Source: a virus. Taken from it: 24,710 nucleotides of DNA. Positions 7,048 through 22,782 of this stretch are shown here, piece after piece. The stretch covers positions 1 through 24,710 of IMG/VR virus record IMGVR_UViG_3300046009_007483; one strand, written 5' to 3'. The notes under the pieces are model-generated. The model ran no database searches. It worked only from the letters and a program-made list of their open reading frames with translations, and was not told the origin of the DNA. The position numbers and the translations under genes are program-made. The stretch's first letter is position 1, and every line of letters starts with the position of its first letter.

Positions 7048-7076
7048 TCCTAAAATAGTAAAAGTTAAAGTTTTAC

Positions 7077-7105
7077 TTGATCTGAACCTCAAATGGTGGT
7101 AATAT
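7077..7105 (+). promoter_or_regulatory. Possible sigma70-like promoter of glycosyltransferase
   Basis: TTGATC and TAATAT are separated by 17 nt. If real, the -10 box overlaps the ATG at 7104, and translation would begin at the ATG at 7113 or 7116. Confidence 0.3.
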
Positions 7106-8755: not shown

Positions 8756-8763
8756 TATATCGA

Positions 8764-8769
8764 TATTTA
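8764..8769 (-). promoter_or_regulatory. T4-type late promoter motif before homing endonuclease
   Basis: GTAAATA on the minus strand lies 8 nt before the ATG at 8755. Confidence 0.4.
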
Positions 8770-8770
8770 C

Positions 8771-8799
8771 TTGTTTATATTGGAAGTATGTGATATATT
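8771..8799 (+). promoter_or_regulatory. Possible sigma70-like promoter of the 8969-12270 operon
   Basis: TTGTTT and TATATT are separated by 17 nt. The preceding bases (TTTAC) match those before the glycosyltransferase promoter. It lies upstream of the gene remnant and the replication operon. Confidence 0.3.
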
Positions 8800-8816
8800 A
8801 CTATCGAACAATATGA

Positions 8817-8972
8817 AATCAGCAGATATTAAAAAAGGCAAATCGTTCTATAGGTGTTTGGCCTATTTTTGTTGTCCATTACGGTTTAGGAGAATTCCAA
8901 AATGACCCTTTATGGCACAAATTAGCTGCAAAATTCGCAGAGGAATATAAGAATTACAATTTTTCAATATGA
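8817..8972 (+). pseudogene. C-terminal remnant of a second glycosyltransferase
   Basis: The frame encodes about 51 residues. Its 'SIGVWPIFVVHYGLG' matches 'KIGVWPIFIIHYSPG' near the end of the intact glycosyltransferase at 7104-7832, and both end in a short Lys/Asn-rich tail. A stop codon (8814-8816) interrupts the frame just upstream and no start codon serves it. The remnant's TGA overlaps the ATG of the next gene (ATGA at 8969-8972), the coupled arrangement expected if an intact glycosyltransferase once headed this operon. The homing endonuclease lies immediately upstream on the other strand. A short ATG frame at 8813-8905 overlaps it in another frame and looks accidental. Confidence 0.65.
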
Positions 8973-9457
8973 TTGACCGATATTACAAATTAGATCATCC
9001 AGAGCAGAACATATGTAACTTGGATACATGGTATCCTGAACATCCGAAATATTCATACGATGGTAATATTCTAATCGCCGATCAACCCGAGAAAATAGAG
9101 ATAGTATATGAAATCCCTCATTTTTCGAGGGGGTCAGGGATACTTTTTTCTGATTTATTTTTGATGAAGATCGCATATCATATGTCTAATACATGTCAAG
9201 AAAAAGGGTCACATATTGTACGAGATGATATTATAGAGGTTAGAACAGTCCTATCCTTTGAGCCGGATTCTTTAATAATAATTCCTGAAACTAAAACGGT
9301 TGCAAAGGTGGTATGTTCCAAGATCAAATATAACAACACCTTCACCTCTCTGCTTAATATAAATTCCGACTACAGTAACTCAGATTTCTTGAAAAGAATA
9401 GAAGACGAGTTCTTTAACCTTATAAGAACAACCCGAATTAGAGCAACAAGACTATGA
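8969..9457 (+). CDS. Conserved-looking unknown phage protein
   Basis: This 162-residue protein is not recognised. It is soluble, acidic and mixed alpha/beta in appearance, rich in Ile/Tyr/Asp, with strands such as 'EKIEIVYEIPHF' and 'SLIIIPETKTVAKVV' and a helical C-terminus (FLKRIEDEFFNLI). No metal motif or membrane segment is visible. It opens the replication operon: its ATG overlaps the stop of the glycosyltransferase remnant and its own TGA overlaps the ATG of the clamp-loader-like gene, so translation is probably coupled. A role linked to replication is suggested only by this position. Confidence 0.6.
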   Translation: MIDRYYKLDHPEQNICNLDTWYPEHPKYSYDGNILIADQPEKIEIVYEIPHFSRGSGILFSDLFLMKIAYHMSNTCQEKGSHIVRDDIIEVRTVLSFEPDSLIIIPETKTVAKVVCSKIKYNNTFTSLLNINSDYSNSDFLKRIEDEFFNLIRTTRIRATRL

Positions 9458-9861
9458 TTAATAATTTTGATATAATAGACAATGTTCTGTTCCGAAAGAA
9501 AGACCTCGAACTTTTAGTCGGGGACGATTGTTCTCAATGGGTAATCAATAAAGGTATTTCTTTTCATTCAACAGTCCTTGCTCAATTTATAAACACGACA
9601 GCAAATATTTACGGGAAATACCTTGAACCGCAACAGTATATCGACTATATTAACACGATAATACCTAAGACCCAATATCGTAAAATTGAATGGTTGAAGA
9701 GCGAAAAGACTATTAAAATGCCTATTCCGAATATTGCACAGTTGGCCGAATACTATGAATGTAGTCAACGTGAAATTAAAGAACTTTTTACAGATTTCCC
9801 TGATATGGTAGAAGAGGAACAAGAAGAAAACTTGAAAAAATACAAAAGAAAATCTAAATAA
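9454..9861 (+). CDS. 62: Clamp-loader small subunit, T4 gp62-like (probable)
   Basis: This 135-residue protein resembles gp62, the small subunit of the gp44/62 sliding-clamp loader. Support by eye: 'WVINKGISFHSTVLAQFINTTANIY' recalls the family's 'NrgLS...vl.aN.mN' region, 'PQQYIDYINTIIPKTQYRKIEWLK' recalls its 'qyd.l.n.i..kkRf.kW.K', and a C-terminal helical unit 'IAQLAEYYECSQREIKELF' follows. It is shorter than T4 gp62 (187 residues). The C-terminus is charged and lysine-rich. The start overlaps the upstream stop (ATGA). A gp44-type large subunit is not in this window. Called by pattern only; an unrelated small replication protein remains possible. Confidence 0.5.
   Translation: MINNFDIIDNVLFRKKDLELLVGDDCSQWVINKGISFHSTVLAQFINTTANIYGKYLEPQQYIDYINTIIPKTQYRKIEWLKSEKTIKMPIPNIAQLAEYYECSQREIKELFTDFPDMVEEEQEENLKKYKRKSK
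9855..9860 (+). promoter_or_regulatory. T4-type late promoter motif before co-chaperonin
   Basis: CTAAATA lies 9 nt before the ATG at 9870. Its last two bases belong to the stop codon of the clamp-loader-like gene. It could add late expression to a gene in an early operon. Confidence 0.45.
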
Positions 9862-9869
9862 ACACAACT

Positions 9870-10301
9870 ATGGACGCACAAGAGAGATTACTACAATCCG
9901 TTATCGATAAGAAGATATATTCTGAAAAAATCATAAATCATGATGTTGATTTGAACAAGTGGAATATCCGTTCACTCTATAAAGACACATTATGGTTGAA
10001 GCTGTTGGACGAACCCGATGCAGACCTTCTTAAAAAAGGTAGCTTGTTTGTTAAGGCCAGCCAGATTAAAGGGCCGTATAGATTAGCAGAAGTTATTATG
10101 GTCGGCCCAGATTCAGTTAATGCAAAACCTGGAGATAGGGTTATTTTACCTCAAATGACGGGCCAACCTGGATATAGATCATATGAAGGTTTTAAGACAT
10201 GGTTCGTCAAAGAAGATGCAATTATGGCAGTCTTAGATTTCGAAGGAACCGATGAGGAAATGCATCAAGACATCGAAGAGCAACTTTTATTGAACGTATA
10301 A
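9870..10301 (+). CDS. 31: GroES/gp31-like co-chaperonin
   Basis: This 143-residue protein looks like the phage counterpart of GroES (T4 gp31), which caps host GroEL so that the major capsid protein can fold. The body reads like a GroES barrel: 'LWLKLLDEPDADLLKKGSLF', then 'GPYRLAEVIMVGPDSV', then 'AKPGDRVILPQMTG', then 'DAIMAVL'. The stretch 'KGSLFVKASQIKG' occupies the place of the GroEL-binding mobile loop. An extra acidic C-terminus (about 20 residues) and a 30-residue N-terminal extension make it longer than T4 gp31 (111 residues). A late-type motif precedes it inside the operon, as would suit a head-assembly factor. The fold is fairly convincing; function is by family. Confidence 0.6.
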   Translation: MDAQERLLQSVIDKKIYSEKIINHDVDLNKWNIRSLYKDTLWLKLLDEPDADLLKKGSLFVKASQIKGPYRLAEVIMVGPDSVNAKPGDRVILPQMTGQPGYRSYEGFKTWFVKEDAIMAVLDFEGTDEEMHQDIEEQLLLNV

Positions 10302-10303
10302 TT

Positions 10304-10531
10304 ATGAATGAACGTGAATTTTGTTATTGGTTACAAGGTTTCTTTGAATTGGGTGGTCAGGATGTGGTAGAATTATCGGCTGAACAAGTGCAGATCATTG
10401 AGGACCATTTGGCTCTAGTCTTTAAAAAAGTTACCCTTGACAAAAAACAATCTTATTGTTCACCGCAACCTGATGTTTACTTTCCCCTCAATACCGCACA
10501 TTCAGGTGTAACTGCTGTAGCATTATGTTGA
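10304..10531 (+). CDS. Small conserved phage protein, unknown
   Basis: This 75-residue protein has a 'REFCYWLQGFFELGG' start and 'LSAEQVQIIEDHLALVF' helix. That N-terminal pattern (cyWLQGyFEL ... Q...I..HL) is familiar from many T4-like and other tailed phages, where no function is known to me. It starts 2 nt after the co-chaperonin stop and its end overlaps the next start by 7 nt. Confidence 0.65.
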   Translation: MNEREFCYWLQGFFELGGQDVVELSAEQVQIIEDHLALVFKKVTLDKKQSYCSPQPDVYFPLNTAHSGVTAVALC

Positions 10532-10839
10532 ACGCGACTGATGATATAGATTTTCCTCCGGTTCAAGAGGGATATATTAGACATTTCACTGATCATACGG
10601 GGCGGTGGTATGAGGATATTCCAGAGGCGGAATATAATCAACCGCCGTCTGAGTTAAAGGCTGAACTACTACAACTGCTACGAGAAGAAATTGATGCAGA
10701 GATGATTCGTCGTATGCGTGAATTTAGTTGTGATTTCTGTAAAGGCGTCGATGAGGAGATTATGGGAAGAATTCGTGCATTATATCCAGAAGATAAATAT
10801 ATGGGTGAACAATGCATCCCTTCAGTTTCTTCTAGGTAA
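10525..10839 (+). CDS. Small acidic unknown protein
   Basis: This 104-residue protein is not recognised. It is acidic, with a central amphipathic helix (ELLQLLREEIDAEMIRRMREF) and a single CxxC (FSCDFCKG, near residue 70). The ATG at 10525 overlaps the end of the previous gene. Its last 35 nt overlap the GTG start proposed for the next gene in another frame. Such overlap chains run through the whole operon. Confidence 0.5.
   Translation: MLNATDDIDFPPVQEGYIRHFTDHTGRWYEDIPEAEYNQPPSELKAELLQLLREEIDAEMIRRMREFSCDFCKGVDEEIMGRIRALYPEDKYMGEQCIPSVSSR
10794..10799 (+). promoter_or_regulatory. T4-type late promoter motif inside a coding end
   Basis: GATAAATA lies 5 nt before the proposed GTG start at 10805 and within the coding region of the preceding gene. 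Confidence 0.35.
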
Positions 10840-11317
10840 AAATGTCGTTGAACTGACTTTTGTTAGACGACATAAGAGAGAAGAATACTCTGATATTAGA
10901 GGTCTGTTTGGAACCACAAGTCCTGATTTGTTGAACAGTGATTTCGGATTTCAAGTTTTACAGTTTCGACCCCCTAATGGGATAGGAATGGGTTATGATT
11001 ATAAGCAGAAAGGTCTATGCGTAGTGTGGGATATCTTTAGACAATCATATAGAGTGTTTGGGTCGGAACAAGTGCAGATACGTAAACAGTGGGATGTATC
11101 CACTCCAGAAGCATTAGAAGAGTTTAAACAATACTTCTATGATAATGTCTTCTCATACACTGAACAACAGAAAGAGGAGTTTATGGGATATGTTGGACAA
11201 TTGAATATTATTCGGAATCCTAAAATATCACCACAAACTAGGAACTCAACTAAGTCCTCTATAATTAGTAAATTTACTCCATTTTTCAATAGAATGAAGA
11301 GCTTTTTCGGCAAATAA
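10805..11317 (+). CDS. SH3-barrel / WYL_2 (DUF2693)-like phage protein
   Basis: This is about 171 residues from a GTG. The core resembles the small SH3-like family common in T4-like marine phages: 'GKNVVELTFVRRHKR', then 'DLLNSDFGFQVLQFRPPNG', then 'KGLCVVWDIFRQSYRVF'. The GTG at 10805 places about a dozen residues before the first conserved strand; a longer in-frame start at 10718 would overlap the upstream gene by over 120 nt. A TAAATA motif 5 nt before the GTG supports the choice. The C-terminal 45 residues are Lys/Ser/Asn-rich and end FFNRMKSFFGK, an amphipathic basic helix. Role unknown; the fold suggests a nucleic-acid or ligand-binding barrel. Confidence 0.55.
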   Translation: MNNASLQFLLGKNVVELTFVRRHKREEYSDIRGLFGTTSPDLLNSDFGFQVLQFRPPNGIGMGYDYKQKGLCVVWDIFRQSYRVFGSEQVQIRKQWDVSTPEALEEFKQYFYDNVFSYTEQQKEEFMGYVGQLNIIRNPKISPQTRNSTKSSIISKFTPFFNRMKSFFGK

Positions 11318-11344
11318 GATGTTGCAGCCCAATATTTTTATTTC

Positions 11345-11350
11345 TAAATA
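11345..11350 (+). promoter_or_regulatory. T4-type late promoter motif
   Basis: CTAAATA lies 6 nt before the ATG at 11357, in the 39-nt gap after the SH3-like gene. Confidence 0.45.
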
Positions 11351-11356
11351 TAGAAA

Positions 11357-11728
11357 ATGGAACATAATCATTCGGAACTGGAAAACATACTTCGCCGACA
11401 TCTCCAAAAAGAAATCATCATATCGGTTGATGGTGTAGAAATCAAAAAAGGGAAATTTCTCCTATTCCAAAATAATATTTTGGCGAACAATTTCTATTAC
11501 GATCTCACAATTGAAAAGACCAAAAAAATTGATATTTTCAAACTACCTTACCCTTTTAAGATCGAAGATTATTCCGATGAGGGTCTTCTCTATCTCGATT
11601 ATAGAATTAAGACTCTAGTGGCTAACGATAAACATGTATCTCGTCTAGTCAACCTAAGTGAAAAATATGCAGATTCTTCTAAACCGTCGAAATTTGCTGA
11701 TAAAATAATCGAAATTGAATTTATTTAA
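11357..11728 (+). CDS. Small unknown protein
   Basis: This 123-residue protein is not recognised. It is Lys/Glu/Ile-rich with an alternating strand pattern in the first half (IIISVDGVEIKKGKFLLF) and a helical C-terminus. There are no cysteines, membrane segments or obvious catalytic motif. A late motif precedes it and only one base separates its stop from the next start codon. Confidence 0.6.
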   Translation: MEHNHSELENILRRHLQKEIIISVDGVEIKKGKFLLFQNNILANNFYYDLTIEKTKKIDIFKLPYPFKIEDYSDEGLLYLDYRIKTLVANDKHVSRLVNLSEKYADSSKPSKFADKIIEIEFI

Positions 11729-11729
11729 T

Positions 11730-11975
11730 ATGTGGTATTTCTCTATATTCTCCGGTGAATTATTTGAATCTGAAACTCCTCTTTCTGATCCCCATCAGAT
11801 TCCTTTAATCAGAAAACCCCCGACTCATTGTCGTAAATGTTATGGTAGATTTTTTACCGATTATAACATCACTACGAAACAGTATACTATATGTAATAAG
11901 TGTTTAACTAAATGTTTGAATGCCGAATACATGATGCAGTATTTTAAAGAAAAAGATGCCCGAAAGAAAAATTAA
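11730..11975 (+). CDS. Small zinc-ribbon protein
   Basis: This 81-residue protein has a compact four-cysteine site: 'HCRKCYGRF' (about residues 34-37) and 'CNKCLTKC' (about 55-62), consistent with a zinc ribbon. The N-terminus is aromatic and acidic, and the C-terminus is a charged helix. The ATG at 11730 is preferred to a TTG at 11715, which would overlap the previous gene. Its end overlaps the next start by 20 nt. Phage zinc ribbons of this size often bind nucleic acid or transcription machinery; nothing here specifies which. Confidence 0.6.
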   Translation: MWYFSIFSGELFESETPLSDPHQIPLIRKPPTHCRKCYGRFFTDYNITTKQYTICNKCLTKCLNAEYMMQYFKEKDARKKN

Positions 11976-12270
11976 CGGAATCGTGTACAGAGATGGTAAA
12001 CTCTTTCGATTTATAAATCTTTTCGATGAGAAGATTAGAGATATCTACGAAGAACAGTATAATACCCTAATATCAGGCAAACCTATAACCGAGACGAGTT
12101 TGGTTCTTGTGGAATTCGATTTAGTAGGGTCGAGATATAAGACTCATCCTATTGTAGTCGTGGACATGTTAGATAAGAACTCTAACCCTCTAACAGTTAA
12201 AAGACTGATTAAGGATGAGATTATTAATGCTGCATATAAAACTGCAACATCTTATCTTAGTAAACAATAA
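11956..12270 (+). CDS. Small unknown protein, last gene of the operon
   Basis: This 104-residue protein is not recognised. It has a beta-rich middle (TSLVLVEFDLVGSRY, HPIVVVDMLDK) between charged helices. It overlaps the previous gene at its start and overlaps the convergent glycine-rich gene by 14 nt at its end. No strong terminator was seen between the two convergent genes. Confidence 0.6.
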   Translation: MPERKINGIVYRDGKLFRFINLFDEKIRDIYEEQYNTLISGKPITETSLVLVEFDLVGSRYKTHPIVVVDMLDKNSNPLTVKRLIKDEIINAAYKTATSYLSKQ

Positions 12271-13456
12271 TCAGGGCAAATCCTGACTGCCCGTCACCAC
12301 CTCGTCCCCCATTATATGCGGCCCTATTGCTTCCAGCATCACCGCCTCCTCCTCCACCGCCACCTCCTCCTGCCCCACCTATACCGCCACCCGCACCGTT
12401 GCCGCCGCTATTACCAACATTACCCCCTGCCCCACCGCCTCCACCTGTTCCTATCAGGCCGCTAAATACGCTATTTGCACCGTAAAAGGCAAAACTCTGA
12501 CCGCCTATACCACCACTGAACGCGATAGTAGAGGTAGAGTTACCATGGTTTCCACCATTACCACCAACTCCCCAACCTAAAGTCACCTTAGACCCAGCAC
12601 CACCCGCACCACCACCCGTAGGCAACCAGCCCTCTATGCAATGTTCAGCATTTGATGGGCTATTATAACGTGGATATCTGCCCCCTGCGAATTGTTGATG
12701 AATATTAAAACCGTCAAACGAGACGTTTAATGCACTTGCACCGCCCACACCTCCGACATATGACCCGCCCCTACCTCCTCTACCGCCAACAGCCGTGATG
12801 TCGGTAAAAATAGTAGCACCGCCATCTAATCCATCTGAACCATAAGCCCCGAAAGTTGAGTCCCCATGTGTTCCACCAAGCCCCACATATACATTTTCTA
12901 ATGAGTTCAGGTCTGTAGTATTAACCCAGAAGTCAATAACTGCCGCGCCACCACCTCCACCCCCGCCGCCGTATGCGCCACCTACAAAAACACCGCCACT
13001 TAGAGTCAGATTAATCGTCAATGACGATCCTCCACCGCCACCTCCACCGCCACCCACTAGACGAACGAAGACAGGTCGTGGAAAGGTCGGAGACGGGTTA
13101 GTCCATGTATCTGAAGATGTGAAAAATTGTGAGTCTAAAGCTAAAGAGGATATAGTATTGACGGTCGTATATAACCCAATAAATCTATCTGCGGTATTCT
13201 CGATGGATATCAGGGAATTAGTTAATGAAGTAATCGATGAATTAGAAGATGAAGATAGTGCTATAAGATCGGTAGGATATCCAGATAATGCATTATAGTT
13301 AGCACTTAATGATGATATCTCATTCTGTCCTAATATGGTCTGATCGGCTAATATAGCCAAAGAACCATCGAGACTGCTCAACGATTCATTAAATATGTCT
13401 AATGATTCCGCGAGGTCGTCTAAACGTATGGGTGAATTTGGTATGAAATACGGCAT
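12257..13456 (-). CDS. Glycine-rich tail-fibre/adhesin-like protein (copy B)
   Basis: This 399-residue protein has two parts. Residues 1-115 are Ser/Leu/Asn-rich with heptad-like spacing (LAESLDIFNESLSSLDGSL...), suggesting a trimeric coiled coil. After 'SSDTWTNPSPTFPRPVFVRLVGG' the rest is dominated by poly-glycine runs separated by short loops, ending 'GQSGFALIIVY'. This matches glycine-rich domains of phage fibres and distal adhesins, such as the polyglycine-II sandwich of phage S16 gp38, in which loops contact the receptor. It follows copy A at 13460 within 4 nt and shares its start (MPYxIP), junction and end, so the pair is a tandem duplication. Function as a receptor-binding protein is inferred from composition. 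Confidence 0.65.
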   Translation of the reverse strand: MPYFIPNSPIRLDDLAESLDIFNESLSSLDGSLAILADQTILGQNEISSLSANYNALSGYPTDLIALSSSSNSSITSLTNSLISIENTADRFIGLYTTVNTISSLALDSQFFTSSDTWTNPSPTFPRPVFVRLVGGGGGGGGGSSLTINLTLSGGVFVGGAYGGGGGGGGAAVIDFWVNTTDLNSLENVYVGLGGTHGDSTFGAYGSDGLDGGATIFTDITAVGGRGGRGGSYVGGVGGASALNVSFDGFNIHQQFAGGRYPRYNSPSNAEHCIEGWLPTGGGAGGAGSKVTLGWGVGGNGGNHGNSTSTIAFSGGIGGQSFAFYGANSVFSGLIGTGGGGGAGGNVGNSGGNGAGGGIGGAGGGGGGGGGGDAGSNRAAYNGGRGGDGQSGFALIIVY

Positions 13457-13459
13457 ATA

Positions 13460-14623
13460 TTAGAAAACGTAAATATGGACATATCCTGGTGCCCCGTCCC
13501 CACCACCACCGCCCCATTCGAAAGCACCTGCTCCACCACCACCGCCTCCAGAACCATACCCACCACCATTCCCCCCACCGCCCCCGACATCCTCGCCACT
13601 AGAACCACCCCCACCACCTGTCCCAGTCATTCGAGCAGATGAACCGTTTCCTCCGTTACCATATGGGATACTCGCACCTCCGAGGACTTGTCCTATGGCC
13701 GATGATCCTTGGGCACCACCATTCCCACCTACAAAATAGTCATACAAACCTCCCCCGAGGAATGCGACCCCACCACCACCACCACCACCTGTAGGTAGCC
13801 AACTGATAGATACTGGTTGATTTAATGCCGTTGGGAATCCGCCTGCCCCGCCAGAACAAGTGTTTATTAAAGTCCAACCGTTAGTTCCACCTTCGACCAT
13901 TATAGTACCTCCTGACCCGCCAACGGTCTGCGTTCCGTAACCTCCACCTAAACCACCGAGAGCACTAATATTACTGAAAGATGAAGTGCCTCCTCGACTA
14001 CCCGCTGTAGCAGGTAGTTCCCCCGAACCTCCTAAACCTCCAGCCCCTACTATGACCAATTCCGTTGCAGAAAGCAAACTTGTTTGAGTCCAAAATTCTA
14101 CCACAGAAGCACCACCTCCACCCCCACCGCCGCCAGAATAATCATCTACAGCCGGATTTAGCGGACCTCCACCTCCACCGCCGCCGCCCCCTCCACCGAC
14201 AAGTCGGACGAAAACAGGTCTACTAGCCGGATATGGAGGTGAACCGTACGGATTGTTCCAAACGGTAGAAGATGTGTATAGAGTCTGAGTCGGTGCCCAC
14301 CCCGCTGAATTTGTGTTTACCGTAGTATAAACCGATTCACATGTAATATCACTCAAATCGGCACTTAGGGATATAACATCTGAGCTTAATGAGTTTATAT
14401 CCGAGACGATATCGGCGGAAAAACTGTAAAACGAAGAAACTTCATATAACACACTATCGATATAGATTATATCCGCACTGAGAGAGGCTAGGTCTTCTGT
14501 TATAGAACTTGATAGACTGTACAGATTACTATCTAGAGAGGTAAGAGAAATGTTTAATGTGGATAAAGTGTTCCCAACACTGGAATACTTAGATGCAAGT
14601 TCTGGGATGTAATTATAAGGCAT
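13460..14623 (-). CDS. Glycine-rich tail-fibre/adhesin-like protein (copy A)
   Basis: This 387-residue protein has the same plan as copy B. It has a Ser/Leu coiled-coil-like N-terminus (about 1-115, LSTLNISLTSLDSNLYSLSS), then a junction with 'PYPASRPVFVRLVGG', then poly-glycine runs up to about ten residues, ending 'GAPGYVHIYVF'. The shared 'YTTVNT' motif and 'RPVFVRLVGG' junction mark paralogy, while the loops between glycine runs differ, as expected if receptor contacts diverge. It is the first gene of a two-gene leftward unit with a perfect TATAAATA promoter 5 nt upstream, and it is insulated from the upstream core gene by a terminator. Other options are a head-decoration or short-fibre protein. 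Confidence 0.65.
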   Translation of the reverse strand: MPYNYIPELASKYSSVGNTLSTLNISLTSLDSNLYSLSSSITEDLASLSADIIYIDSVLYEVSSFYSFSADIVSDINSLSSDVISLSADLSDITCESVYTTVNTNSAGWAPTQTLYTSSTVWNNPYGSPPYPASRPVFVRLVGGGGGGGGGGGPLNPAVDDYSGGGGGGGGASVVEFWTQTSLLSATELVIVGAGGLGGSGELPATAGSRGGTSSFSNISALGGLGGGYGTQTVGGSGGTIMVEGGTNGWTLINTCSGGAGGFPTALNQPVSISWLPTGGGGGGGVAFLGGGLYDYFVGGNGGAQGSSAIGQVLGGASIPYGNGGNGSSARMTGTGGGGGSSGEDVGGGGGNGGGYGSGGGGGGAGAFEWGGGGGDGAPGYVHIYVF

Positions 14624-14628
14624 AGTGA

Positions 14629-14636
14629 TATTTATA
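14629..14636 (-). promoter_or_regulatory. T4-type late promoter, perfect TATAAATA
   Basis: This is the full octamer on the minus strand, 5 nt before the ATG at 14623 and just downstream of the terminator at 14648-14681. Confidence 0.7.
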
Positions 14637-14647
14637 ATTGTGAAAAC

Positions 14648-14681
14648 AAAAAAAGCGATAGAAGTTACTCTATCGCTTTTT
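14648..14681. terminator. Bidirectional intrinsic terminator
   Basis: An 8-bp GC-containing stem (14655-14662 with 14669-14676), with A7 before and T5 after, extends the pairing. On the minus strand it ends in a run of seven T, 20 nt beyond the stop of the acidic core-like gene. Confidence 0.8.
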
Positions 14682-14701
14682 CAAATTTCTGTCAGGAGAT
14701 T

Positions 14702-15496
14702 TTAGAAATAATTCTTTTCTTTCTTCCCACTGCGGGTTTTGTAACCAGTGTTTTGCTTACCGAAATTAGCATCTCCGTTACCTTTAACGTGCGAGGTTGC
14801 AGGTTGACGTTTTGCTTTACCGTCATAAGTTCCTTGAGCACCGTGTTCGGCACCTTCTGAACCTTCGGTATCTTCTGGGTCATAACCAGTATCTTGCTTG
14901 CTGAAATCGGCATCTCCGTTACCTTTAACGTGTGATGTTGCAGGTTGGCGTCCAGCTTTTCCGCTGTAGTTACCTTGTGCTCCGTGGTTTGCACCGCCGC
15001 CAGTTTGACCATAAGATTCAAGGGGAATGTCGTCGCCACCGTCGATATCATCAAAACCGTCATCGAAACCATCTTCGTCTTCAAACCCTTCGTCTTCGTC
15101 GCCACCCAAAAGATCAGCTAATTCGCCGAGGGTCATTGCGCGTAGTTCGGAAAGAGTGAATGTGTCTTCATCTCCACCTTCATCGTCACCACCATCGAAA
15201 TCGAAAGTGTCGTCGTTAGTGTCATCAAAACCTAATTCGCCGCCTTCATCTTCGAACTGTTCCATGAAAGTAGAATAAAGAGAATCAAAAGTGTTGCTTT
15301 CTGCTGCATAACCTGCACCAGCATCATAACCGCCTTTTTTACCTTTTTTCTTTTTCTTAAAGGATTTCTTAGGGGTGTCTTCTGCGCTATCATCTGCGTC
15401 AGTGTCGGTATCAGTTCCCTCGTGGATAAGTCCTGCATCAGGGGACATTTGACCAAGGAAGTTTTCTGCGTAAATTTCATCAAGTGATTTTGCCAT
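14702..15496 (-). CDS. Highly acidic prohead-core-like protein with C-terminal repeats
   Basis: This 264-residue protein has a short N-terminus MAKSLDEIYAEN resembling a capsid-targeting peptide, a Lys-rich patch (about 43-55), then a very Asp/Glu/Gly-rich region (about 80-165). Two 47-residue repeats end it; each contains 'HGAQG', then 'RQPATSHVKGNGDA'. Extreme acidity plus a core-like N-terminus recalls T4 prohead core proteins such as gp67, the source of acidic internal peptides, but no direct homology is visible. It is divergent from the large terminase and shares the 45-nt gap with it. A late motif precedes the start by 7 nt and a strong terminator follows the stop. An internal or scaffold virion role is inference. 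Confidence 0.6.
   Translation of the reverse strand: MAKSLDEIYAENFLGQMSPDAGLIHEGTDTDTDADDSAEDTPKKSFKKKKKGKKGGYDAGAGYAAESNTFDSLYSTFMEQFEDEGGELGFDDTNDDTFDFDGGDDEGGDEDTFTLSELRAMTLGELADLLGGDEDEGFEDEDGFDDGFDDIDGGDDIPLESYGQTGGGANHGAQGNYSGKAGRQPATSHVKGNGDADFSKQDTGYDPEDTEGSEGAEHGAQGTYDGKAKRQPATSHVKGNGDANFGKQNTGYKTRSGKKEKNYF
14769..15000 (-). repeat. Tandem 141-bp repeat inside the acidic core-like gene
   Basis: Matching stretches begin at 14769 and 14910 (each starts gcatctccgttacctttaac), an offset of 141 bp or 47 codons, so the reading frame is kept. The two units encode near-identical 'RQPATSHVKGNGDA' segments. Confidence 0.75.
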
Positions 15497-15503
15497 ATAA
15501 GTT

Positions 15504-15509
15504 TATTTA
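15504..15509 (-). promoter_or_regulatory. T4-type late promoter motif for core-like gene
   Basis: ATAAATA on the minus strand lies 7 nt before the ATG at 15496. It is one of a divergent pair with 15530-15535. Confidence 0.55.
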
Positions 15510-15529
15510 TTAAATTATTTCCATTTTTC

Positions 15530-15535
15530 TAAATA
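15530..15535 (+). promoter_or_regulatory. T4-type late promoter motif for large terminase
   Basis: CTAAATA lies 6 nt before the ATG at 15542. Confidence 0.55.
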
Positions 15536-15541
15536 AACTAC

Positions 15542-17248
15542 ATGGGCCGTAAGAAAAACGATCAATATTTAAACAACAACGAGAACCTACCTATTAAGGT
15601 AGAATTCGATTACACACCAGAACAAATCGAGGAAATTCGTCGCTGTAAAGAAGACATTATTTATTTCGCCGAGAACTTCTTCTATATTAAAGTGTTGGGG
15701 CAAGGTAGGCAAAAAATCAAACTTCACGATATTCAAAGAAAACTGATTACTACCATTGTAGAAAATCAGAACACTATTATATGTGCATCTCGCCAAACAG
15801 GTAAATCGACATTGATGACGATTGTATGTCTATGGTATGCACTGTTCCAAAAAGATAAAGAAGTTGCTATCTTGGCTAACAAAGAAGTTCAAGCAAAAGA
15901 GATTCTAGATCGTATCAAATTGGCATACGAAGAAATACCTAACTATATTAAAGCGGGGGTATGGACTTTCTCTCAAGAAATCATCCGTCTCACCAATGGT
16001 TCTAAAATCTATGTTTCCACCACATCCGCAACATCCCTTCGTGGTCGTTCGGTTGATGTGTTGTTCGTTGACGAATTTGCATTCGTTCCTGCCGAAATCG
16101 CAGAAGCATTCTTTAAATCAGTTGTCCCTGTTCTATGTTCCGGTCCCGATTCTAAGATGATCATTACTTCTACACCTAATGGTGTTGGTAATAAGTTCCA
16201 CGAATTGTTCTCTAATGCCGAGAATGGTCGTTCGACAACTTGGGCATGGGATAGAATGTATTGGTATCAAATACCTGGCCGTGACGAAGCATGGAAAGCA
16301 AAGCAACTCGACATGATTGGTTATGATATGCAGATGTGGAACCAAGAATTTGAAATAATGTTCCTCGAAGACGGTCAATCTGCTATTAACCTTGAAGTTA
16401 TCGAGAGACTTAAAAAGATGTGCCGTTCGCCCGATCACTCTTTCGATAATGGAGATTATAAAATTTGGTATCCTGCTGAACCAGAACATATATACGTATT
16501 CGGGGTCGATGTCGCCGAAGGTGTCGGACAAGATTGGTCCGTGATTCAAATATTGGATATCACTGATCTCACTAATATTATACATGCAGGTCAGTATGCC
16601 GTCAACGATCTTCAACCGTTCGTGTTTGCAGAAAAATTGAACCAAATCGCAAGAGCATGGGGTCGCCCGTTCCTGTGCGTTGAAAGTAATAAAGAAGGTT
16701 CTCAAGTTTTAGATGCGCTCATCAATGTCCATCATTATGATAACATCGTGACTGTTACGATGAAAAATGATAAACGTGGTTTCCACCAAAAACCGGGTAT
16801 TTTCTGTCATCAAAATTCGAAATATACGGGTATTATGAACTTCAAATACTTCATTGAACACTTGGAAGTGGTTAAGATATTTGATTTGGCAACACTGAAA
16901 GAGTTCGAAACATTTGTCCGTAAAGAGAATAAGACTTGGACCGCACAAAAGGGTAAACATGATGACCGAGTCATGTCGATGATATGGGCATTATTCATCC
17001 TCGAAAAAGATGTGGCAGAGCAATATCTAGATGTCTTGGAATATGACGAGACTGGTAAACCTTGCCGTATCTCCGATCCTAATCAGGACTTGGCAAATAT
17101 GTCTTTCTATGAACCTGATTCATATTCTGCATATGCAAAAACAGGAGGTGCCCCACTACCTACGATATTCCATATCGGAGGACAAATGGTGTCCGAACAA
17201 TCATTTGAAATGGAGAAGTTCAGTATAGGCGGCTGGCAGATTGCATAA
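15542..17248 (+). CDS. 17: Large terminase subunit, T4 gp17 type (ATPase plus nuclease)
   Basis: This 568-residue DNA-packaging motor is complete. The ATPase domain has Walker A 'SRQTGKST' (83-90), Walker B 'VLFVDE' (173-178) and coupling motif 'ITSTPNG' (208-214). The RNase H-fold nuclease domain shows its three acidic positions: 'GVDVAEG' (D323), 'CVESN' (E381) and 'KHDDRVMS' (D474/D475), corresponding to T4 D401, E458 and D542. It cuts concatemeric DNA and drives it into the prohead through the portal. It is divergent from the acidic core-like gene, and its TAA stop forms the first three bases of the late motif of the next gene. A second, nuclease-free ATPase of the same type lies at 22018-22782. 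Confidence 0.95.
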   Translation: MGRKKNDQYLNNNENLPIKVEFDYTPEQIEEIRRCKEDIIYFAENFFYIKVLGQGRQKIKLHDIQRKLITTIVENQNTIICASRQTGKSTLMTIVCLWYALFQKDKEVAILANKEVQAKEILDRIKLAYEEIPNYIKAGVWTFSQEIIRLTNGSKIYVSTTSATSLRGRSVDVLFVDEFAFVPAEIAEAFFKSVVPVLCSGPDSKMIITSTPNGVGNKFHELFSNAENGRSTTWAWDRMYWYQIPGRDEAWKAKQLDMIGYDMQMWNQEFEIMFLEDGQSAINLEVIERLKKMCRSPDHSFDNGDYKIWYPAEPEHIYVFGVDVAEGVGQDWSVIQILDITDLTNIIHAGQYAVNDLQPFVFAEKLNQIARAWGRPFLCVESNKEGSQVLDALINVHHYDNIVTVTMKNDKRGFHQKPGIFCHQNSKYTGIMNFKYFIEHLEVVKIFDLATLKEFETFVRKENKTWTAQKGKHDDRVMSMIWALFILEKDVAEQYLDVLEYDETGKPCRISDPNQDLANMSFYEPDSYSAYAKTGGAPLPTIFHIGGQMVSEQSFEMEKFSIGGWQIA

Positions 17249-17251
17249 ATA
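17246..17251 (+). promoter_or_regulatory. T4-type late promoter motif formed by the terminase stop codon
   Basis: ATAAATA lies 5 nt before the ATG at 17257. The TAA of the terminase gene is the first half of TAAATA. Confidence 0.5.
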
Positions 17252-17256
17252 ATCAT

Positions 17257-17694
17257 ATGAATTTCTCGCAATTATATACTCTAATTTCCGAAGATATCGA
17301 TTATCCTCTTGCAACTGGTAGGGACGTTCAAGCATTTGCTGGGGATATTGATTGGAAAGGGAAAATTGTATACATGTCACCTGATAAATTTCTTCATCTT
17401 GCTGCACCACTACTTGCTGCTCATATAAACAGAGATGGATTATCGAAATTAAACAAAAGATTACTAGATCAGTTACCGACCGACCCTCTCGTGTTATTGG
17501 TGGATATGCATCCTGTGAAAAAAGTGAGAGGTCATGAGGGGCGTCATCGTGCATTAGCAGCGAAAAAGCTTGGAATCGAGAAGGTTCCGGTGTTGATTTT
17601 CACTGGAAGTATGTATACCCGAACCCCAAAATGGACACCCGAACAACATGCAGATGTTGAGGATGTTGATTCTTTTCAACCGGAAAGATATTAA
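17257..17694 (+). CDS. ParB/Srx-fold-like protein with capsid-targeting-like N-terminus
   Basis: This 145-residue protein has 'KVRGHEGRHRALAAKKLGIEK' in the region 89-109, the 'GHEGRHRA' box typical of ParB/sulfiredoxin-like domains, followed by 'VPVLIF'. A preceding 'LVLLVDMHP' strand fits the same fold. Such domains bind or cut nucleic acid, or act as ATPases or CTPases; which applies here cannot be told. The N-terminus MNFSQLYTLISEDI contains I-S-E and resembles the T4 capsid-targeting peptide. It lies between terminase and the GAF gene, with a late motif 5 nt upstream. The position within the late block and the N-terminus suggest a head-packaged protein delivered with the DNA, like T4 internal proteins. 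That role is inference. Confidence 0.6.
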   Translation: MNFSQLYTLISEDIDYPLATGRDVQAFAGDIDWKGKIVYMSPDKFLHLAAPLLAAHINRDGLSKLNKRLLDQLPTDPLVLLVDMHPVKKVRGHEGRHRALAAKKLGIEKVPVLIFTGSMYTRTPKWTPEQHADVEDVDSFQPERY

Positions 17695-17699
17695 ATAAT

Positions 17700-18200
17700 A
17701 TGAATTTCTATGATTTATTATTAGAAGAAGAAAGGTGTGCTCTTATTAAAGAGGTCCAATGGTTGCGCCCCGATGAATTCTTCGACGATATAACATTCAT
17801 AGCATCCTACATATGTCAGACTCCGATAGCACTTCTAACCCTAATCGATAATCGTTACCAAACTTTTAAAAGCTCTTATGGATTAGACCCTTCGGTTACA
17901 AAAACTGATCGTGAAGCTAGTTTTTGTCATCATACACTACAGAACAAAAAGAATGAACCTCTGGTCGTGGAAGATGCACATTTAGACCCACGATTCATGG
18001 AAAACCCTCTTGTTATAGGATATCCTAACATCAGATTTTACTGTGGCTATCCTTTCACTACAAGAGAAAATGTTCATCTTGGAACATTATGTGTGATAGA
18101 TACCAAACCAAGAAATCTCTCAGAAGACGAAAAATCATGTTTAAATCGTCTCGCAAGAATGGCTAGTTCATTTGCTGACATAAAACATAAAACTAAATAA
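17700..18200 (+). CDS. Stand-alone GAF-domain protein
   Basis: This 166-residue protein is nearly all one GAF domain (about 25-160). Diagnostic pieces are 'TPIALLTLIDNRYQTFKSS' (41-59), 'TDREASFCHHTL' (69-80), 'LVVEDAHLDPRF' (88-99), 'IRFYCGYPF' (111-119) and 'LGTLCVIDTKPR' (127-138). In bacteria such domains bind small ligands or cofactors inside sensor kinases, cyclases and diguanylate enzymes; here no output domain is attached. The conserved Cys in 'SFCHH' is kept. The N-terminus MNFYDLLLEEE resembles a capsid-targeting peptide and contains L-L-E. It begins 5 nt after the stop of the ParB-like gene and is followed by the tail tube gene, so it sits inside the packaging/tail block. A co-injected regulator of host signalling is a hypothesis; a virion structural use of the fold is the alternative. 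Confidence 0.8.
   Translation: MNFYDLLLEEERCALIKEVQWLRPDEFFDDITFIASYICQTPIALLTLIDNRYQTFKSSYGLDPSVTKTDREASFCHHTLQNKKNEPLVVEDAHLDPRFMENPLVIGYPNIRFYCGYPFTTRENVHLGTLCVIDTKPRNLSEDEKSCLNRLARMASSFADIKHKTK
18194..18199 (+). promoter_or_regulatory. T4-type late promoter motif before tail tube gene
   Basis: CTAAATA lies 5 nt before the ATG at 18205 and overlaps the TAA stop of the GAF gene. Confidence 0.5.
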
Positions 18201-18204
18201 TTAG

Positions 18205-18813
18205 ATGAAACAACCCACGCCACCCAATTTAGATTTAGACTGTGAAATCCCTGTAACAGCCGATGGGTATTATTCAGATGAACAGAGCATTATAAATCCA
18301 TCGAGGAAAGATCATTTCCTCTTTGTGATGGACTTACCCCCTGCATTGAAAGATTCTGTTGCGAAAGAAGATAGATTATGCCACAGCGGGAGTTTGGAGA
18401 GATTGGAATTCAGCATTTGGGGAGCAGTTATACCAGATATTAGCGTCCCAAAATTAGATATTACCTTCGGCGGTCAATCATGGGCATGGTCAAGTCATAG
18501 TCGCCCCTCATATGGAACTATTAATTGTAATTTCACTGTTGATAATAGATATGATAATTATTTCATTTTATGGAAATGGTTGAACATACAGAACCAATCC
18601 ATCGAAGGGGATCATGTCGATTTTATGAAAGAATACTCATCTAAAATATCCATATTTCCTCTCGATGAATATAAAAAACCAATAGCCGAATTTGTATATC
18701 ATGATGCATTTATAACAAATATTGGAGGTATAACAAAATCTACTCGTGACGCAGCCGAGACAGAATCGACCTTTTCATTTGACTTTAGCCAATTAGAGAT
18801 GCATCTTATATAA
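18205..18813 (+). CDS. 19: Tail tube protein, T4 gp19 type
   Basis: This 202-residue protein matches the gp19-type tube fold: 'LDITFGGQSWAWSSHSRPSYG', then 'INCNFTVDNRYDNYFILWKWL', then 'SSKISIFPLDEYKKPIAEF', then 'HDAFITNIGGITKS' and a final strand 'STFSFDFSQLEMH'. Stacked hexameric rings of this protein form the inner tube through which DNA passes. It is longer than T4 gp19 (163 residues), mostly through an N-terminal extension of about 40 Pro/Asp-rich residues. It directly precedes the sheath gene; in T4 the order is sheath then tube. Its stop codon lies within the sheath gene's perfect late promoter. Confidence 0.7.
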   Translation: MKQPTPPNLDLDCEIPVTADGYYSDEQSIINPSRKDHFLFVMDLPPALKDSVAKEDRLCHSGSLERLEFSIWGAVIPDISVPKLDITFGGQSWAWSSHSRPSYGTINCNFTVDNRYDNYFILWKWLNIQNQSIEGDHVDFMKEYSSKISIFPLDEYKKPIAEFVYHDAFITNIGGITKSTRDAAETESTFSFDFSQLEMHLI

Positions 18814-18816
18814 ATA
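18809..18816 (+). promoter_or_regulatory. T4-type late promoter, perfect TATAAATA, distal promoter of sheath
   Basis: This full octamer contains the tail tube stop codon and lies 32 nt before the sheath ATG. It would give a leader of about 27 nt, unlike most late motifs here. Confidence 0.65.
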
Positions 18817-18836
18817 AGGAATTATCTGTAAAATAA

Positions 18837-18842
18837 TAAATA
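18837..18842 (+). promoter_or_regulatory. T4-type late promoter motif, proximal promoter of sheath
   Basis: ATAAATA lies 6 nt before the ATG at 18849. Together with the octamer at 18809 it forms a tandem pair before the most abundant tail protein. Confidence 0.5.
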
Positions 18843-18848
18843 GTATAC

Positions 18849-21800
18849 ATGGCTCAAAATAATCTTGCACCACGTATATCTATCCGTGAAATCGACCGCT
18901 CTCAAATTACCGTTCAACCTGCTGGAACTAATGTGTTCCTTGCTGGATTTACTCCACAAGGCCCATCCGATGAACCTTTCAATATCTCGTCTTTGTCCGA
19001 GTTTGAAGAAGTTTTCGGTCTTCCTGGAACACCCGCTGAGAAATATTCTCATAATGCAGTAAAACAGCTTCTTGAAACCTCCCCTGCGGCAGTCACCTTC
19101 ACTCGTATGCCTTATGGTTCTGGTGCAGGTATCGGCTATAGTGATTCTGTAAATGCCTTGATTTTCCCTGTTATCGGCGTAAGTGCAGTCGAAATCGATC
19201 CTTGCGATTACTTCCGTGATGTCGATGAAACCAACTGCCGTGTTAATTTCCCATGGTTGGTCGATTATTTCACCCCTGAAGCAGTATGTTTCGGTTCTTC
19301 TAATCTCAACTGTCCTTTAAATTCACTTGACGAAGATGCGAATGTCTTGTATATTCACAACCACCCAGTCGAATATGATTCGGTCCTTACCGGATTCAAA
19401 TTTGTTGTGGATGATGATTCGACCTCCGAAGATATCAAAATCTTCCAATTGCGTCCAACAGTTAACGGAACCGCAACCGAGTTCAATATCGTCACTGCAT
19501 TTACCCTCTCTTCGATCCCTGGATATAACATCACTCTTGATGAAAATCAATCGAATCTTTCCAACGATGCGAAAAGATTGATCGTTAACCTTGAGAACAC
19601 CCCGTTCACCCAGATCGTCTCGATCACCGCTGGATTCTTAAGCGGACAAACTGTTTCAGGTCTTCCATTGGAAGCAGGAGATGTTTTCGGGACATATTCT
19701 CTCGGAGATGGCGTGTTGAAATATTTCAATGCATCGTCTGATGTTGCTGCCTCATACAAGACCTCTTACACCGTTCTGAGTAGCTTGTCCTCCGGTTCAA
19801 CTCTTTCCCTTACCACAACCGCTGTCAATGCGACTACCACCGATTCTCTTATCGAATTCTGTGCAGTTCCTATCGAAGTTGGTCTTTCATGTGAAACAGT
19901 TCTTGAACTTGGTCTTCAAGTCCCAGAAAAAGATCGATATGATTTCTATCCTCTCATCGGTGATGCACAACTCAACGATGCAAACTTCTATGTCTTAGGT
20001 GCTCCAATCAGCAAAACCTTGAATGCAACCGAATATGAATTGCTTAAAAATGAACAGTTCACTTGGAAATGTGGTGTCTACGAAAACGTTGAGCCTCGTC
20101 TTGATGTTGTTAATAACGATGTCCGTGCTGGTATTGTGGTTGTCAACGAATTGAAGACTGCCCAACTTGAAGATTTCACTGGTTACTACTTGGCATTGAA
20201 CGATAACCTTAATGTTAACCCTAACACTGATTTCGACGATCTCACTGCTGTCGCTGGTTACTACCAAGAACTCTGCCCTGGAGTTTCAGGCGAGTGGATT
20301 CAAGTCCCTGAAGAACGTTGGAACTTCAAAGTTTCAGAAACATTCGACGGAACCGCTGGATCGATTTCAGAAATCACCGAAAATGGTGGCGGAATCAATT
20401 TCGGAACTAAGTCATATAACGATTCTCTTATCGTCTCGTTGTTCAAACTTCGTCCTACTCGTTTGACCGAAACTATCAATAAGCTTGATCAGATTCTTAT
20501 CGAACAATTTACTGGCTCGGTAAATGCTGACCGTAAAGTTAATGATGAATACGGTGGTCCTCCAAGATCAGCTTTCATCGAAAGCACTGTCAACAATGGT
20601 AGCAACTACTTGAAAGTTCTTGTTAACCCGTATCTCTCCAAAAACAACTGTTGGAATGACAATACTGGGGTTCCTCAAAAAACCGTCCGTATGTTCCGTC
20701 AGAAAACAGCAAGTGTGTTCGATTCAGGATTTGATGGTTACAGTGTTCTTGAAGCATATGCCGATAAACTTTTCGGAGTTGGTGCATATAACGGACATTG
20801 CCGTGATGAATTGTTTGAACTTTGTCAGAAAAAAGACATCGGTAACATGGTGGCTAAACTTGAACGTTCTCTTCGTAATGTTGAGAATCCTCTCGAATTC
20901 CCTATCGATCTCACCGTTGATGCTGGTCTATCAACCATCTGGGCTACCCGTGAAGCTGTCAAAGCCGATCACTGTATCACAGACCCTAGTATCTGCTATC
21001 ACTTCGATGATACATACTTCGTTGATACTGACTCGTTGACCCCATATGATGGAACTAACATGGCATCGAAAATCGGAGATGCATGGGAAGTGATCTATAA
21101 TGTCTTCGATAGCTTCGCACGATTCACCCGTAAATCGGTTGGTGGTGTCGGACATCTCCACATTCAAGACCCTCTTCGTCAAATCTTTGTCAATGGTAAG
21201 GATTATAAAGTTGTGCAACGTCAAAAAGGCATTACCCTTGATCCTGCTACTGGTCAACCGACTGAGAAGTATGCAACCTTCAGCCGTAACATTTGGGCAT
21301 CCCTTCGTAACCTCTATGCAGGAACCAACTCTAACTTCTCTGAAAGTCATGCAAACTGGATTAAGAGCTATGATGCAAACACTGATTCTATGATGTGGTT
21401 CGGCCCATCTGCATATAAGGCAGCATTGTTTGCCCGTAACGATTCTAACCAGTTCCCTTGGACTGCTGCACTTGGATTGTCGAACGGACAGCTTGCTAAC
21501 ATCGTGGATATCGCAATCAATCCTAACCAACGCGAAATGGACCTTCTTACCAAAATCGGATTGAACCCAATCGTTAGATTCCCTAACTCTGGCTATGTTG
21601 TCTGGAATACCCTTACTCTCCAAAAAGAGCAAAGTGCATTGCAAGAAAACTATGTTCGTCGTGGATTACTCTGGTTGGCAAATGCAATTCAAGAAAATGT
21701 TCGTGAATTCATCGGTAAACCAAATACCATCATCACCAGAACTCGCACTAAGAATAAGATTACCCCTATCTGTCAATACATGAAAGATAACGAAGGTGTT

Positions 21801-21965
21801 TATGCTTATCAAGTTATCTGTGATGAGAGAAATAACACTAACGAATCAGTTGACCGTGGTGAGCTTCGTATTGCAGTGTATGTCCAACCTACACGCACCG
21901 TGAAACAAATCCTTGTCGATATCATCGTGGATCGCACAGGTGTCACCTCAAGTGTGGTATTCTAA
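18849..21965 (+). CDS. 18: Tail sheath protein, T4 gp18 type, unusually large
   Basis: This 1038-residue protein forms the contractile sheath. The N-terminus is typical: 'APRISIREIDRSQI' and then 'NVFLAGFTPQGPSDEPFNI', 'SLSEFEEVFGLPG' and 'AVKQLLETSPAAVTFTRMP'. The C-terminal third carries the conserved core ('WAALGLSNGQL'-like turn near 875-890, 'YVRRGLLWLANAIQENVREFIG', 'IAVYVQPTRTVKQILVDIIVDRTG'). T4 gp18 has 659 residues; the extra length lies mainly between about 100 and 560, in surface-exposed variable domains. Codons ending in C (ATC, TTC, AAC, GAC) are clearly favoured compared with the ATA/TTT/AAT-rich neighbours, a sign of very high expression. Two late motifs precede it and a strong terminator follows. 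Confidence 0.9.
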   Translation: MAQNNLAPRISIREIDRSQITVQPAGTNVFLAGFTPQGPSDEPFNISSLSEFEEVFGLPGTPAEKYSHNAVKQLLETSPAAVTFTRMPYGSGAGIGYSDSVNALIFPVIGVSAVEIDPCDYFRDVDETNCRVNFPWLVDYFTPEAVCFGSSNLNCPLNSLDEDANVLYIHNHPVEYDSVLTGFKFVVDDDSTSEDIKIFQLRPTVNGTATEFNIVTAFTLSSIPGYNITLDENQSNLSNDAKRLIVNLENTPFTQIVSITAGFLSGQTVSGLPLEAGDVFGTYSLGDGVLKYFNASSDVAASYKTSYTVLSSLSSGSTLSLTTTAVNATTTDSLIEFCAVPIEVGLSCETVLELGLQVPEKDRYDFYPLIGDAQLNDANFYVLGAPISKTLNATEYELLKNEQFTWKCGVYENVEPRLDVVNNDVRAGIVVVNELKTAQLEDFTGYYLALNDNLNVNPNTDFDDLTAVAGYYQELCPGVSGEWIQVPEERWNFKVSETFDGTAGSISEITENGGGINFGTKSYNDSLIVSLFKLRPTRLTETINKLDQILIEQFTGSVNADRKVNDEYGGPPRSAFIESTVNNGSNYLKVLVNPYLSKNNCWNDNTGVPQKTVRMFRQKTASVFDSGFDGYSVLEAYADKLFGVGAYNGHCRDELFELCQKKDIGNMVAKLERSLRNVENPLEFPIDLTVDAGLSTIWATREAVKADHCITDPSICYHFDDTYFVDTDSLTPYDGTNMASKIGDAWEVIYNVFDSFARFTRKSVGGVGHLHIQDPLRQIFVNGKDYKVVQRQKGITLDPATGQPTEKYATFSRNIWASLRNLYAGTNSNFSESHANWIKSYDANTDSMMWFGPSAYKAALFARNDSNQFPWTAALGLSNGQLANIVDIAINPNQREMDLLTKIGLNPIVRFPNSGYVVWNTLTLQKEQSALQENYVRRGLLWLANAIQENVREFIGKPNTIITRTRTKNKITPICQYMKDNEGVYAYQVICDERNNTNESVDRGELRIAVYVQPTRTVKQILVDIIVDRTGVTSSVVF

Positions 21966-22017: not shown

Positions 22018-22782
22018 TTAAAGGCGAATGTTAAATTCAGCATCGAATATTTCATCAAATATTTTGTCGTCTCGACATATCTTCCTCATTTCCATGGCCC
22101 ATTTTTCATCCCAATGAGGAACTTCAGACCAATGGAATACACTAGCATGAAAATCATCATTTTTCGCATATTTCCGTAGGATGCTCTTTTCCACATCATA
22201 ATTCGGTGTTCCCGCCATTACCATTATACTGTTATGGGAACTCATAAGGGGCATCATCGATAGATAATATTTTTCAAATTCTTCATGATAATCGACTTCA
22301 TCTAAGAATAGGAAATCAACATTATGTCCACGAATTGCGGTTCCGAGGGCAGATGATGGAGTGAAATATATTTTCGAACTGTTACCGAACATAAGCATCT
22401 CCTTATTCCGTTTCGCATATGATTGACTGAAGGGTGTCCCATTCAAACCGTCGATGATATGCTCACATATAGCCTGAACAAGACTTGACATATTAGATTT
22501 CGATGAAACTATCATAGATGTATAGCAAGAATTAAAGATACACTGATATATTGCGAAAATACATGCTAGTGTGGTCTTCCCTGTCTGTCGTGCCGCTAAT
22601 AATACCGACCGTGGGTTGTTTTGCCACGATTTAAGTAGTTCTGCTTGTTTTGGGTATAATTTAATAAAATCGGAACCCTTTAGATTATTAAATTTGACAT
22701 GTCGATTTGTGAAATATTCTATATCATGTGAACATTTGACGATTTCGCTAATAGTTTGAGAGGGTGGGTATGTTTCAGGCAT
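22018..22782 (-). CDS. Terminase-type ATPase without nuclease domain (second gp17-like motor)
   Basis: This 254-residue protein has the ATPase half of a large terminase only. Seen: 'LYPKQAELLKSW' (42-53), Walker A 'ARQTGKTT' (64-71), 'AIRGHNVDFLFLDEVD' with Walker B acids D161/E162, and coupling motif 'MAGTPNYD' (189-196). It ends 'FDAEFNIRL', matching 'WNQEFEIMF' at about residue 270 of the intact terminase, which is where the linker to the nuclease begins. The boundary is a clean stop codon followed by a terminator, so it looks like a designed single-domain protein rather than decay. A late motif lies 6 nt before its start. Identity to the window's terminase is low by eye, so this is an old divergence or a separate acquisition. 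A packaging helper, a motor regulator or another DNA translocase are possible roles. Confidence 0.8.
   Translation of the reverse strand: MPETYPPSQTISEIVKCSHDIEYFTNRHVKFNNLKGSDFIKLYPKQAELLKSWQNNPRSVLLAARQTGKTTLACIFAIYQCIFNSCYTSMIVSSKSNMSSLVQAICEHIIDGLNGTPFSQSYAKRNKEMLMFGNSSKIYFTPSSALGTAIRGHNVDFLFLDEVDYHEEFEKYYLSMMPLMSSHNSIMVMAGTPNYDVEKSILRKYAKNDDFHASVFHWSEVPHWDEKWAMEMRKICRDDKIFDEIFDAEFNIRL

What the first reader, a model, noticed from the sequence alone, without database searches (positions are those of the whole stretch)
17700..18200. Stand-alone GAF sensor domain inside the packaging/tail gene block
A nearly perfect GAF domain without any output domain is encoded between terminase and tail tube, under the late-promoter regime, with a capsid-targeting-like N-terminus. 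GAF domains normally sense ligands in host signalling proteins. A late, possibly head-packaged copy could be injected with the DNA to bind a host second messenger or cofactor at the start of infection. The Cys in 'SFCHH' leaves open cofactor binding.
Basis: partly seen in the sequence, partly recalled or inferred. Interest (0 to 1): 0.75.

Follow-up and report, generated by a model that had tools for sequence, protein, structure and literature searches.

The report
Phage-borne stand-alone GAF sensor domain
A T4-like phage from an environmental sample carries a borrowed bacterial sensor (GAF) domain in a swappable gene slot, and its first ten residues resemble the tag T4 phages use to load proteins into the head for injection, so it may be delivered into the host, although that and its ligand are unproven.

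Summary
The ORF at 17700-18200(+) is real: a 166-aa, single-domain GAF protein (Pfam E=1.6e-9; AlphaFold pLDDT 94; Z=24.9 to the GAF of the diguanylate cyclase Dcsbis). It is under purifying selection (dN/dS about 0.09). Its slot, between terL and tail tube, is a variable cargo site: one relative has only GAF, one only the neighbouring 145-aa ORF, four an unrelated 330-aa protein, and three none. The gene is accessory, not packaging or tail machinery. Residues 1-10 (MNFYDLLLEE) replace the bacterial N-terminus and match, in class and spacing, the T4 capsid-targeting sequence with its [LI]xE cleavage motif. The same N-terminal signature recurs on many unrelated proteins of a sister phage, which encodes the T4 gp21-type protease; it is absent from 445 bacterial genes and 83 GAF homologues. 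The best reading is a capsid-loaded, injected accessory effector. How it acts (ligand sponge or dominant-negative dimer partner) is inferred. cNMP, bilin or haem binding has no support. A second, unrelated prophage lineage has a stand-alone GAF of the same family beside its terminase genes, without the tag. Virion mass spectrometry is decisive.

The parts
17700..18200 (+). Stand-alone GAF-domain protein, 166 aa
17700..17729 (+). Capsid-targeting-like N-terminus MNFYDLLLEE with candidate [LI]xE cleavage sites at residues 7-9 and 8-10
   Evidence: T4 rule from PMC9026906
17257..17694 (+). Second cargo ORF in the same slot, 145 aa, N-terminus MNFSQLYTLISE; no family assigned
15542..17248 (+). Terminase large subunit, T4 type; left border of the cargo slot
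18205..18813 (+). Tail tube protein; right border of the cargo slot
   Evidence: phrog_45, E=3.7e-15
17245..17252 (+). ATAAATAA, late-promoter-like motif at the terL stop and cassette border
18849..21965 (+). Tail sheath protein

Best explanation
The gene is accessory cargo. A bacterial GAF sensor module, related to those on diguanylate cyclases and sensor kinases, was captured by a T4-like phage lineage, and its own N-terminus was replaced by a capsid-targeting-like peptide (MNFYDLLLEE). It is inserted in a variable slot between terL and tail tube. Inferred steps: it is made late, bound to the prohead core through the peptide, trimmed after LLE/LEE by the gp21-type protease, and ejected with the DNA. 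In the new host it would act at once through its pocket (sequestering an unknown, probably hydrophobic, ligand) or its dimerisation helices (pairing with and poisoning host GAF-containing signalling enzymes). Shown: the fold, the purifying selection, the slot variability, the shared N-terminal signature, and the protease in a sister phage. Not shown: packaging, cleavage, injection, ligand or target.
For: GAF fold. Purifying selection, window vs L002: dN 0.014, dS 0.166. Cargo slot: L002 GAF only, L003 orf145 only, L004/5/6/10 a different 330-aa protein, L007-9 empty; none of the more distant loci has a gene-sized gap there. No GAF in 11 related phage records. N-terminal signature, loose pattern: 16 of 88 genes in sister phage G002 (about 2 expected), in a cluster at 6.6-21 kb that includes a NUDIX protein. 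Strict pattern: 7/88 in G002 and 2/30 in the window, against 0/445 bacterial genes and 0/770 genes of distant T4-like loci, and 0/83 GAF homologues. All three unrelated protein families found in the slot carry the loose signature. G002 encodes an S77 (gp21-type) protease, a gp23-type capsid protein and a scaffold rich in [LI]xE sites. T4 precedent: the first 10 residues of IPIII suffice, residues 4 and 7 matter for targeting and 8 and 10 for processing (PMC9026906); ip genes have been found by this signal (PMC12373910).
Against: The strict pattern was written after seeing the sister-phage hits and allows the spacing that GAF has; GAF's own shuffle probability is only 0.006, and its loose match alone is weak (0.13). 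Sisters G003 and G004 show weaker enrichment (6 vs 1.7; 8 vs 3.0). Some genes with loose matches lie beside baseplate genes, so the signature may not be head-specific. The window fragment has no capsid genes, so its own protease is unseen. The stand-alone GAF of another prophage lineage has no such peptide, so packaging is not needed for a phage to keep a lone GAF.
Confidence: 0.55

Rival explanations
1. A moron-type accessory gene that acts inside the infected cell after late expression (for instance as a dominant-negative partner of host GAF-containing cyclases or kinases), with no packaging; the N-terminal helix is only a capped start of the domain.
For: A second phage lineage (L186, L187, L189, L192, L194) carries a 165-171-aa stand-alone GAF of the same family beside HNH/TerS/TerL genes on the opposite strand, with an ordinary bacterial N-terminus. 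In the model residues 3-18 form one continuous helix.
Against: The first ten residues differ from all homologues and match the lineage's recurrent N-terminal signature.
Confidence: 0.28
2. A structural or assembly factor for packaging or tail, as its location suggests.
For: Located between terL and tail tube on the same strand.
Against: Absent from the same slot in a close relative with about 90% identical terL and 98.5% identical tube (L003), and in L004-L010; no phage in a collection of 50,697 records has it.
Confidence: 0.04
3. An enzyme of the free methionine-R-sulfoxide reductase type, which are stand-alone GAF proteins using cysteines.
For: Stand-alone GAF with cysteines at 76, 115 and 131; fRMsr structures (4mmn) are among the Foldseek matches, E=6e-8; C115 is phage-specific.
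Against: Far closer in sequence and fold to the Dcsbis sensor GAF (37% identity, Z=24.9) than to 4mmn (10% identity); C76 and C131 are conserved in the sensor family itself.
Confidence: 0.05
4. A chance or decaying gene capture without function.
For: Long branch (1.72) and loss of some family-conserved residues; found in only two contigs.
Against: Open frame in both contigs, 15.5 synonymous vs 5.5 non-synonymous changes, dN/dS about 0.09.
Confidence: 0.05

Closest known systems
GAF domain of Dcsbis (PA2771, PDB 4zmu) and related GAF sensor domains of diguanylate cyclases and kinases
   Same: Same fold (Z 24.9), about 37-41% identity, the SFCxH, DPRFxxNPLV, IRFYxG and GTLC motifs, both dimer helices present
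   Different: No output domain, capsid-targeting-like N-terminus, RQW changed to YQT, A115 to C, two short insertions, LDT lost
T4 internal proteins IPI-IPIII with capsid-targeting sequence
   Same: Short N-terminal peptide with hydrophobic/aromatic residues and an [LI]xE motif at about residue 10; non-essential, swappable cargo genes; gp21-type protease in a sister phage
   Different: Cargo is a recognisable bacterial GAF domain, not an orphan fold; packaging and cleavage not tested
Stand-alone GAF genes of an HK97/lambda-type prophage lineage (L186, L187, L189, L192, L194)
   Same: Same GAF family (40% identity), single domain, beside terminase genes
   Different: Opposite strand, different phage type, ordinary bacterial N-terminus
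Phage sponge proteins such as Acb4 that sequester immune nucleotides (PMC11722364)
   Same: Would share the proposed mode of action: a small ligand-binding phage protein
   Different: Acb4 is reported to block CBASS nucleotide signalling; no GAF relation or ligand has been tested here

Membership tests
GAF domain (PF01590) | Profile match above the curated cut-off | tested here: met
   38.8 bits vs 22.4
GAF domain (PF01590) | GAF fold | tested here: met
   pLDDT 94.4; Foldseek and VIA best match 4zmu
Dcsbis-like GAF sensor subfamily | SFCxH, DPRFxxNPLV, IRFYxG and GTLC motifs | tested here: met
   invariant and near-invariant columns, present in the phage protein
Dcsbis-like GAF sensor subfamily | Linked output domain (GGDEF, PAS/HisKA and similar) | tested here: not met
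   166-aa single-domain ORF; most bacterial homologues are longer, a few are stand-alone
Cyclic-nucleotide-binding GAF | NKFDE motif and cNMP binding | tested here: inconclusive
   Motif not aligned here; nearest solved relative has a degenerate motif and binds neither cAMP nor cGMP (PMC4937426)
Bilin- or haem-binding GAF | Chromophore-attaching Cys or haem-ligating His at the known positions | tested here: inconclusive
   Fold matches to bilin GAFs only at about 8-15% identity; ligand residues not mapped
fRMsr | Catalytic cysteine set | tested here: inconclusive
   Cys 76, 115, 131 present, positions not mapped on fRMsr
T4-type capsid-targeted internal protein | N-terminal targeting peptide with [LI]xE near residue 10 | tested here: met
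   MNFYDLLLEE; strict pattern match, own shuffle probability 0.006
T4-type capsid-targeted internal protein | gp21-type prohead protease in the phage | tested here: inconclusive
   Found in sister phage G002; head genes not on the window fragment
T4-type capsid-targeted internal protein | Presence and cleavage in the virion, injection | not testable with these tools
   Needs virion proteomics

The most novel reading that the evidence does not exclude
A T4-like phage lineage loads a lone sensor-type GAF domain into its capsid and injects it to intercept a host signal (as a ligand sponge) or to poison host GAF-dimer signalling enzymes at the very start of infection: an injected anti-signalling effector.
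Probability: 0.3. Interest if true: 0.78.

Novelty: new variant of a known kind. Interest (0 to 1): 0.5.

Why it matters
Known injected T4 internal proteins with assigned roles inhibit restriction enzymes. A capsid-tagged sensory domain would extend injected effectors to interference with host signalling, and could give a handle on the unknown ligand of a very common bacterial GAF subfamily. The terL/tail-tube slot and the N-terminal signature also give a simple way to list further candidate injected proteins in this uncultured phage lineage.

Tried and rejected
Single-sequence AlphaFold gave a poor model (pLDDT 44) and was replaced by the 74-sequence model. The only INPHARED hit (MT838032) is a GAF-PAS protein of 785 aa on what looks like a bacterial contig. 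IMG/VR hits L083 (GAF-GGDEF at a contig edge) and L084 (host flank of an inovirus-like prophage) are not relatives of the window phage. The tree gives no reliable donor: the phage branch is 1.72 long and its weakly supported neighbours come from unrelated phyla. No hit in PADLOC for GAF or orf145; only a sub-cut-off match to PtsP in NCBIfam. Literature searches found no paper on a phage stand-alone GAF. Pocket residues were not mapped, because model coordinates were not at hand.

Full report
Observation. The ORF at 17700-18200 on the + strand encodes 166 aa and holds nothing but a GAF domain. Pfam GAF scores 38.8 bits against a cut-off of 22.4. The best solved relative is the GAF of the diguanylate cyclase Dcsbis (4zmu), by sequence (E=2.9e-24) and by fold (Foldseek E=2.9e-18; VIA Z=24.9) on a confident model (pLDDT 94.4). 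The gene follows terL and a 145-aa ORF and precedes tail tube and sheath. The phage is a 24,710-base IMG/VR fragment, T4-like by terminase.

Is it a gene under selection? Between the window and contig L002 the GAF shows 15.5 synonymous and 5.5 non-synonymous changes (dN 0.014, dS 0.166). It is kept as a functional protein.

The site. Among 80 terminase-bearing loci, the terL/tube junction holds: GAF and orf145 (window), GAF alone (L002), orf145 alone (L003), a 330-aa unrelated protein (L004, L005, L006, L010), or nothing (L007-L009); in all other loci where both genes were found the gap is at most 209 bases. Cassettes join at short TAAATAAT-type borders. None of 11 related records holds a GAF anywhere. 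So this is a swappable accessory slot, not packaging or tail machinery.

The N-terminus. Bacterial homologues start with variants of 'xxPxNExxRLxAL...LDTxPE'. The phage protein aligns from E9/E10 onwards and has MNFYDLLLEE in front. In T4, ten residues of IPIII suffice for capsid targeting; residues 4 and 7 matter for targeting, 8 and 10 for processing, and gp21 cuts after [LI]xE (PMC9026906). Y4, L7, L8 and E10 of the phage GAF fit that register. In sister phage G002, N-termini such as MKFSELYNLLTE, MRFKDFFLLQE, MKFDFLYKLLLE, MTFDRLAKLILE and MKFEQLYSLITE recur on unrelated proteins, clustered at 6.6-21 kb and including a NUDIX protein. Loose pattern: 16 of 88 genes against about 2 expected. 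Strict pattern: 7/88 there and 2/30 in the window, against 0/445 bacterial genes and 0/770 genes of more distant T4-like loci, and 0/83 GAF homologues. All three unrelated families in the slot match the loose pattern. Caveats: the strict pattern was set after seeing these hits; GAF's own shuffle probability is 0.006; sisters G003 and G004 are less enriched; some matches lie near baseplate genes. G002 has a gp21-type S77 protease, gp23-type capsid protein and a scaffold full of [LI]xE sites.

Mechanism. Injection as head cargo is the best-supported reading (0.55). What it does then is inference. [quoted passage not shown] The phage protein keeps both helices in the model, which would permit pairing with host GAF enzymes. 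It has lost the near-invariant R and W of the RQW motif and A115, so its ligand may differ. Sponge proteins are a known phage strategy (PMC11722364). The invariant C76 belongs to the whole family, so it gives no specific hint of a cofactor.

Relatives. Five IMG/VR prophage contigs of an HK97/lambda-type lineage carry a 165-171-aa stand-alone GAF of the same family beside HNH, TerS, TerL and portal genes on the opposite strand, with an ordinary bacterial N-terminus. Lone GAFs have thus been recruited at least twice by phages, and packaging is not a prerequisite; this feeds the main rival (0.28). The donor cannot be named: the phage branch is long and its neighbours weakly supported.

Verdict. 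Observation confirmed; interpretation partly supported. Each half (a GAF sensor domain; a capsid-targeted cargo peptide) is a known kind, the combination is a new variant.

Noticed in passing
L186, L187, L189, L192, L194, about 7956-8471: Stand-alone GAF genes of the same family in a different (HK97/lambda-type) prophage lineage, on the opposite strand beside HNH/TerS/TerL; the profile phrog_14602 matches the L189 protein at E=3e-48.
   Followed up: partly
G002 (L169/L170), about 5456-21866: Cluster of unrelated proteins, up to 1187 aa, with a shared MxFxxLYxLLxE-type N-terminus; one is a NUDIX protein, most have no family: candidate injected cargo.
   Followed up: partly
window 22018-22782 (-): A 254-aa protein matching only the ATPase part of T4-type terminase large subunits, in addition to the full terL at 15542.
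   Followed up: no
L003 1288-4008 and L010 6840-9548: terL matches are split by some 850-900 bases with overlapping residue ranges, suggesting an inserted intron, homing gene or duplication.
   Followed up: no
window 17257-17694 (+) and L199-L203: The 145-aa ORF has relatives in other viral contigs whose N-termini differ (MIKLKSLLKE, MIKLKTLLLE) but keep an LLxE-like motif; it has an HEGRHRALAAKKLGIEKVPV stretch reminiscent of ParB-like domains.
   Followed up: partly
window 7829-8755 (-): Homing-endonuclease-like gene (phrog_3339, E=1.5e-11) in the structural region.
   Followed up: no
window 12257-13456 and 13460-14623 (-): Two neighbouring glycine-rich proteins with similar layout, perhaps fibre or adhesin parts.
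   Followed up: no
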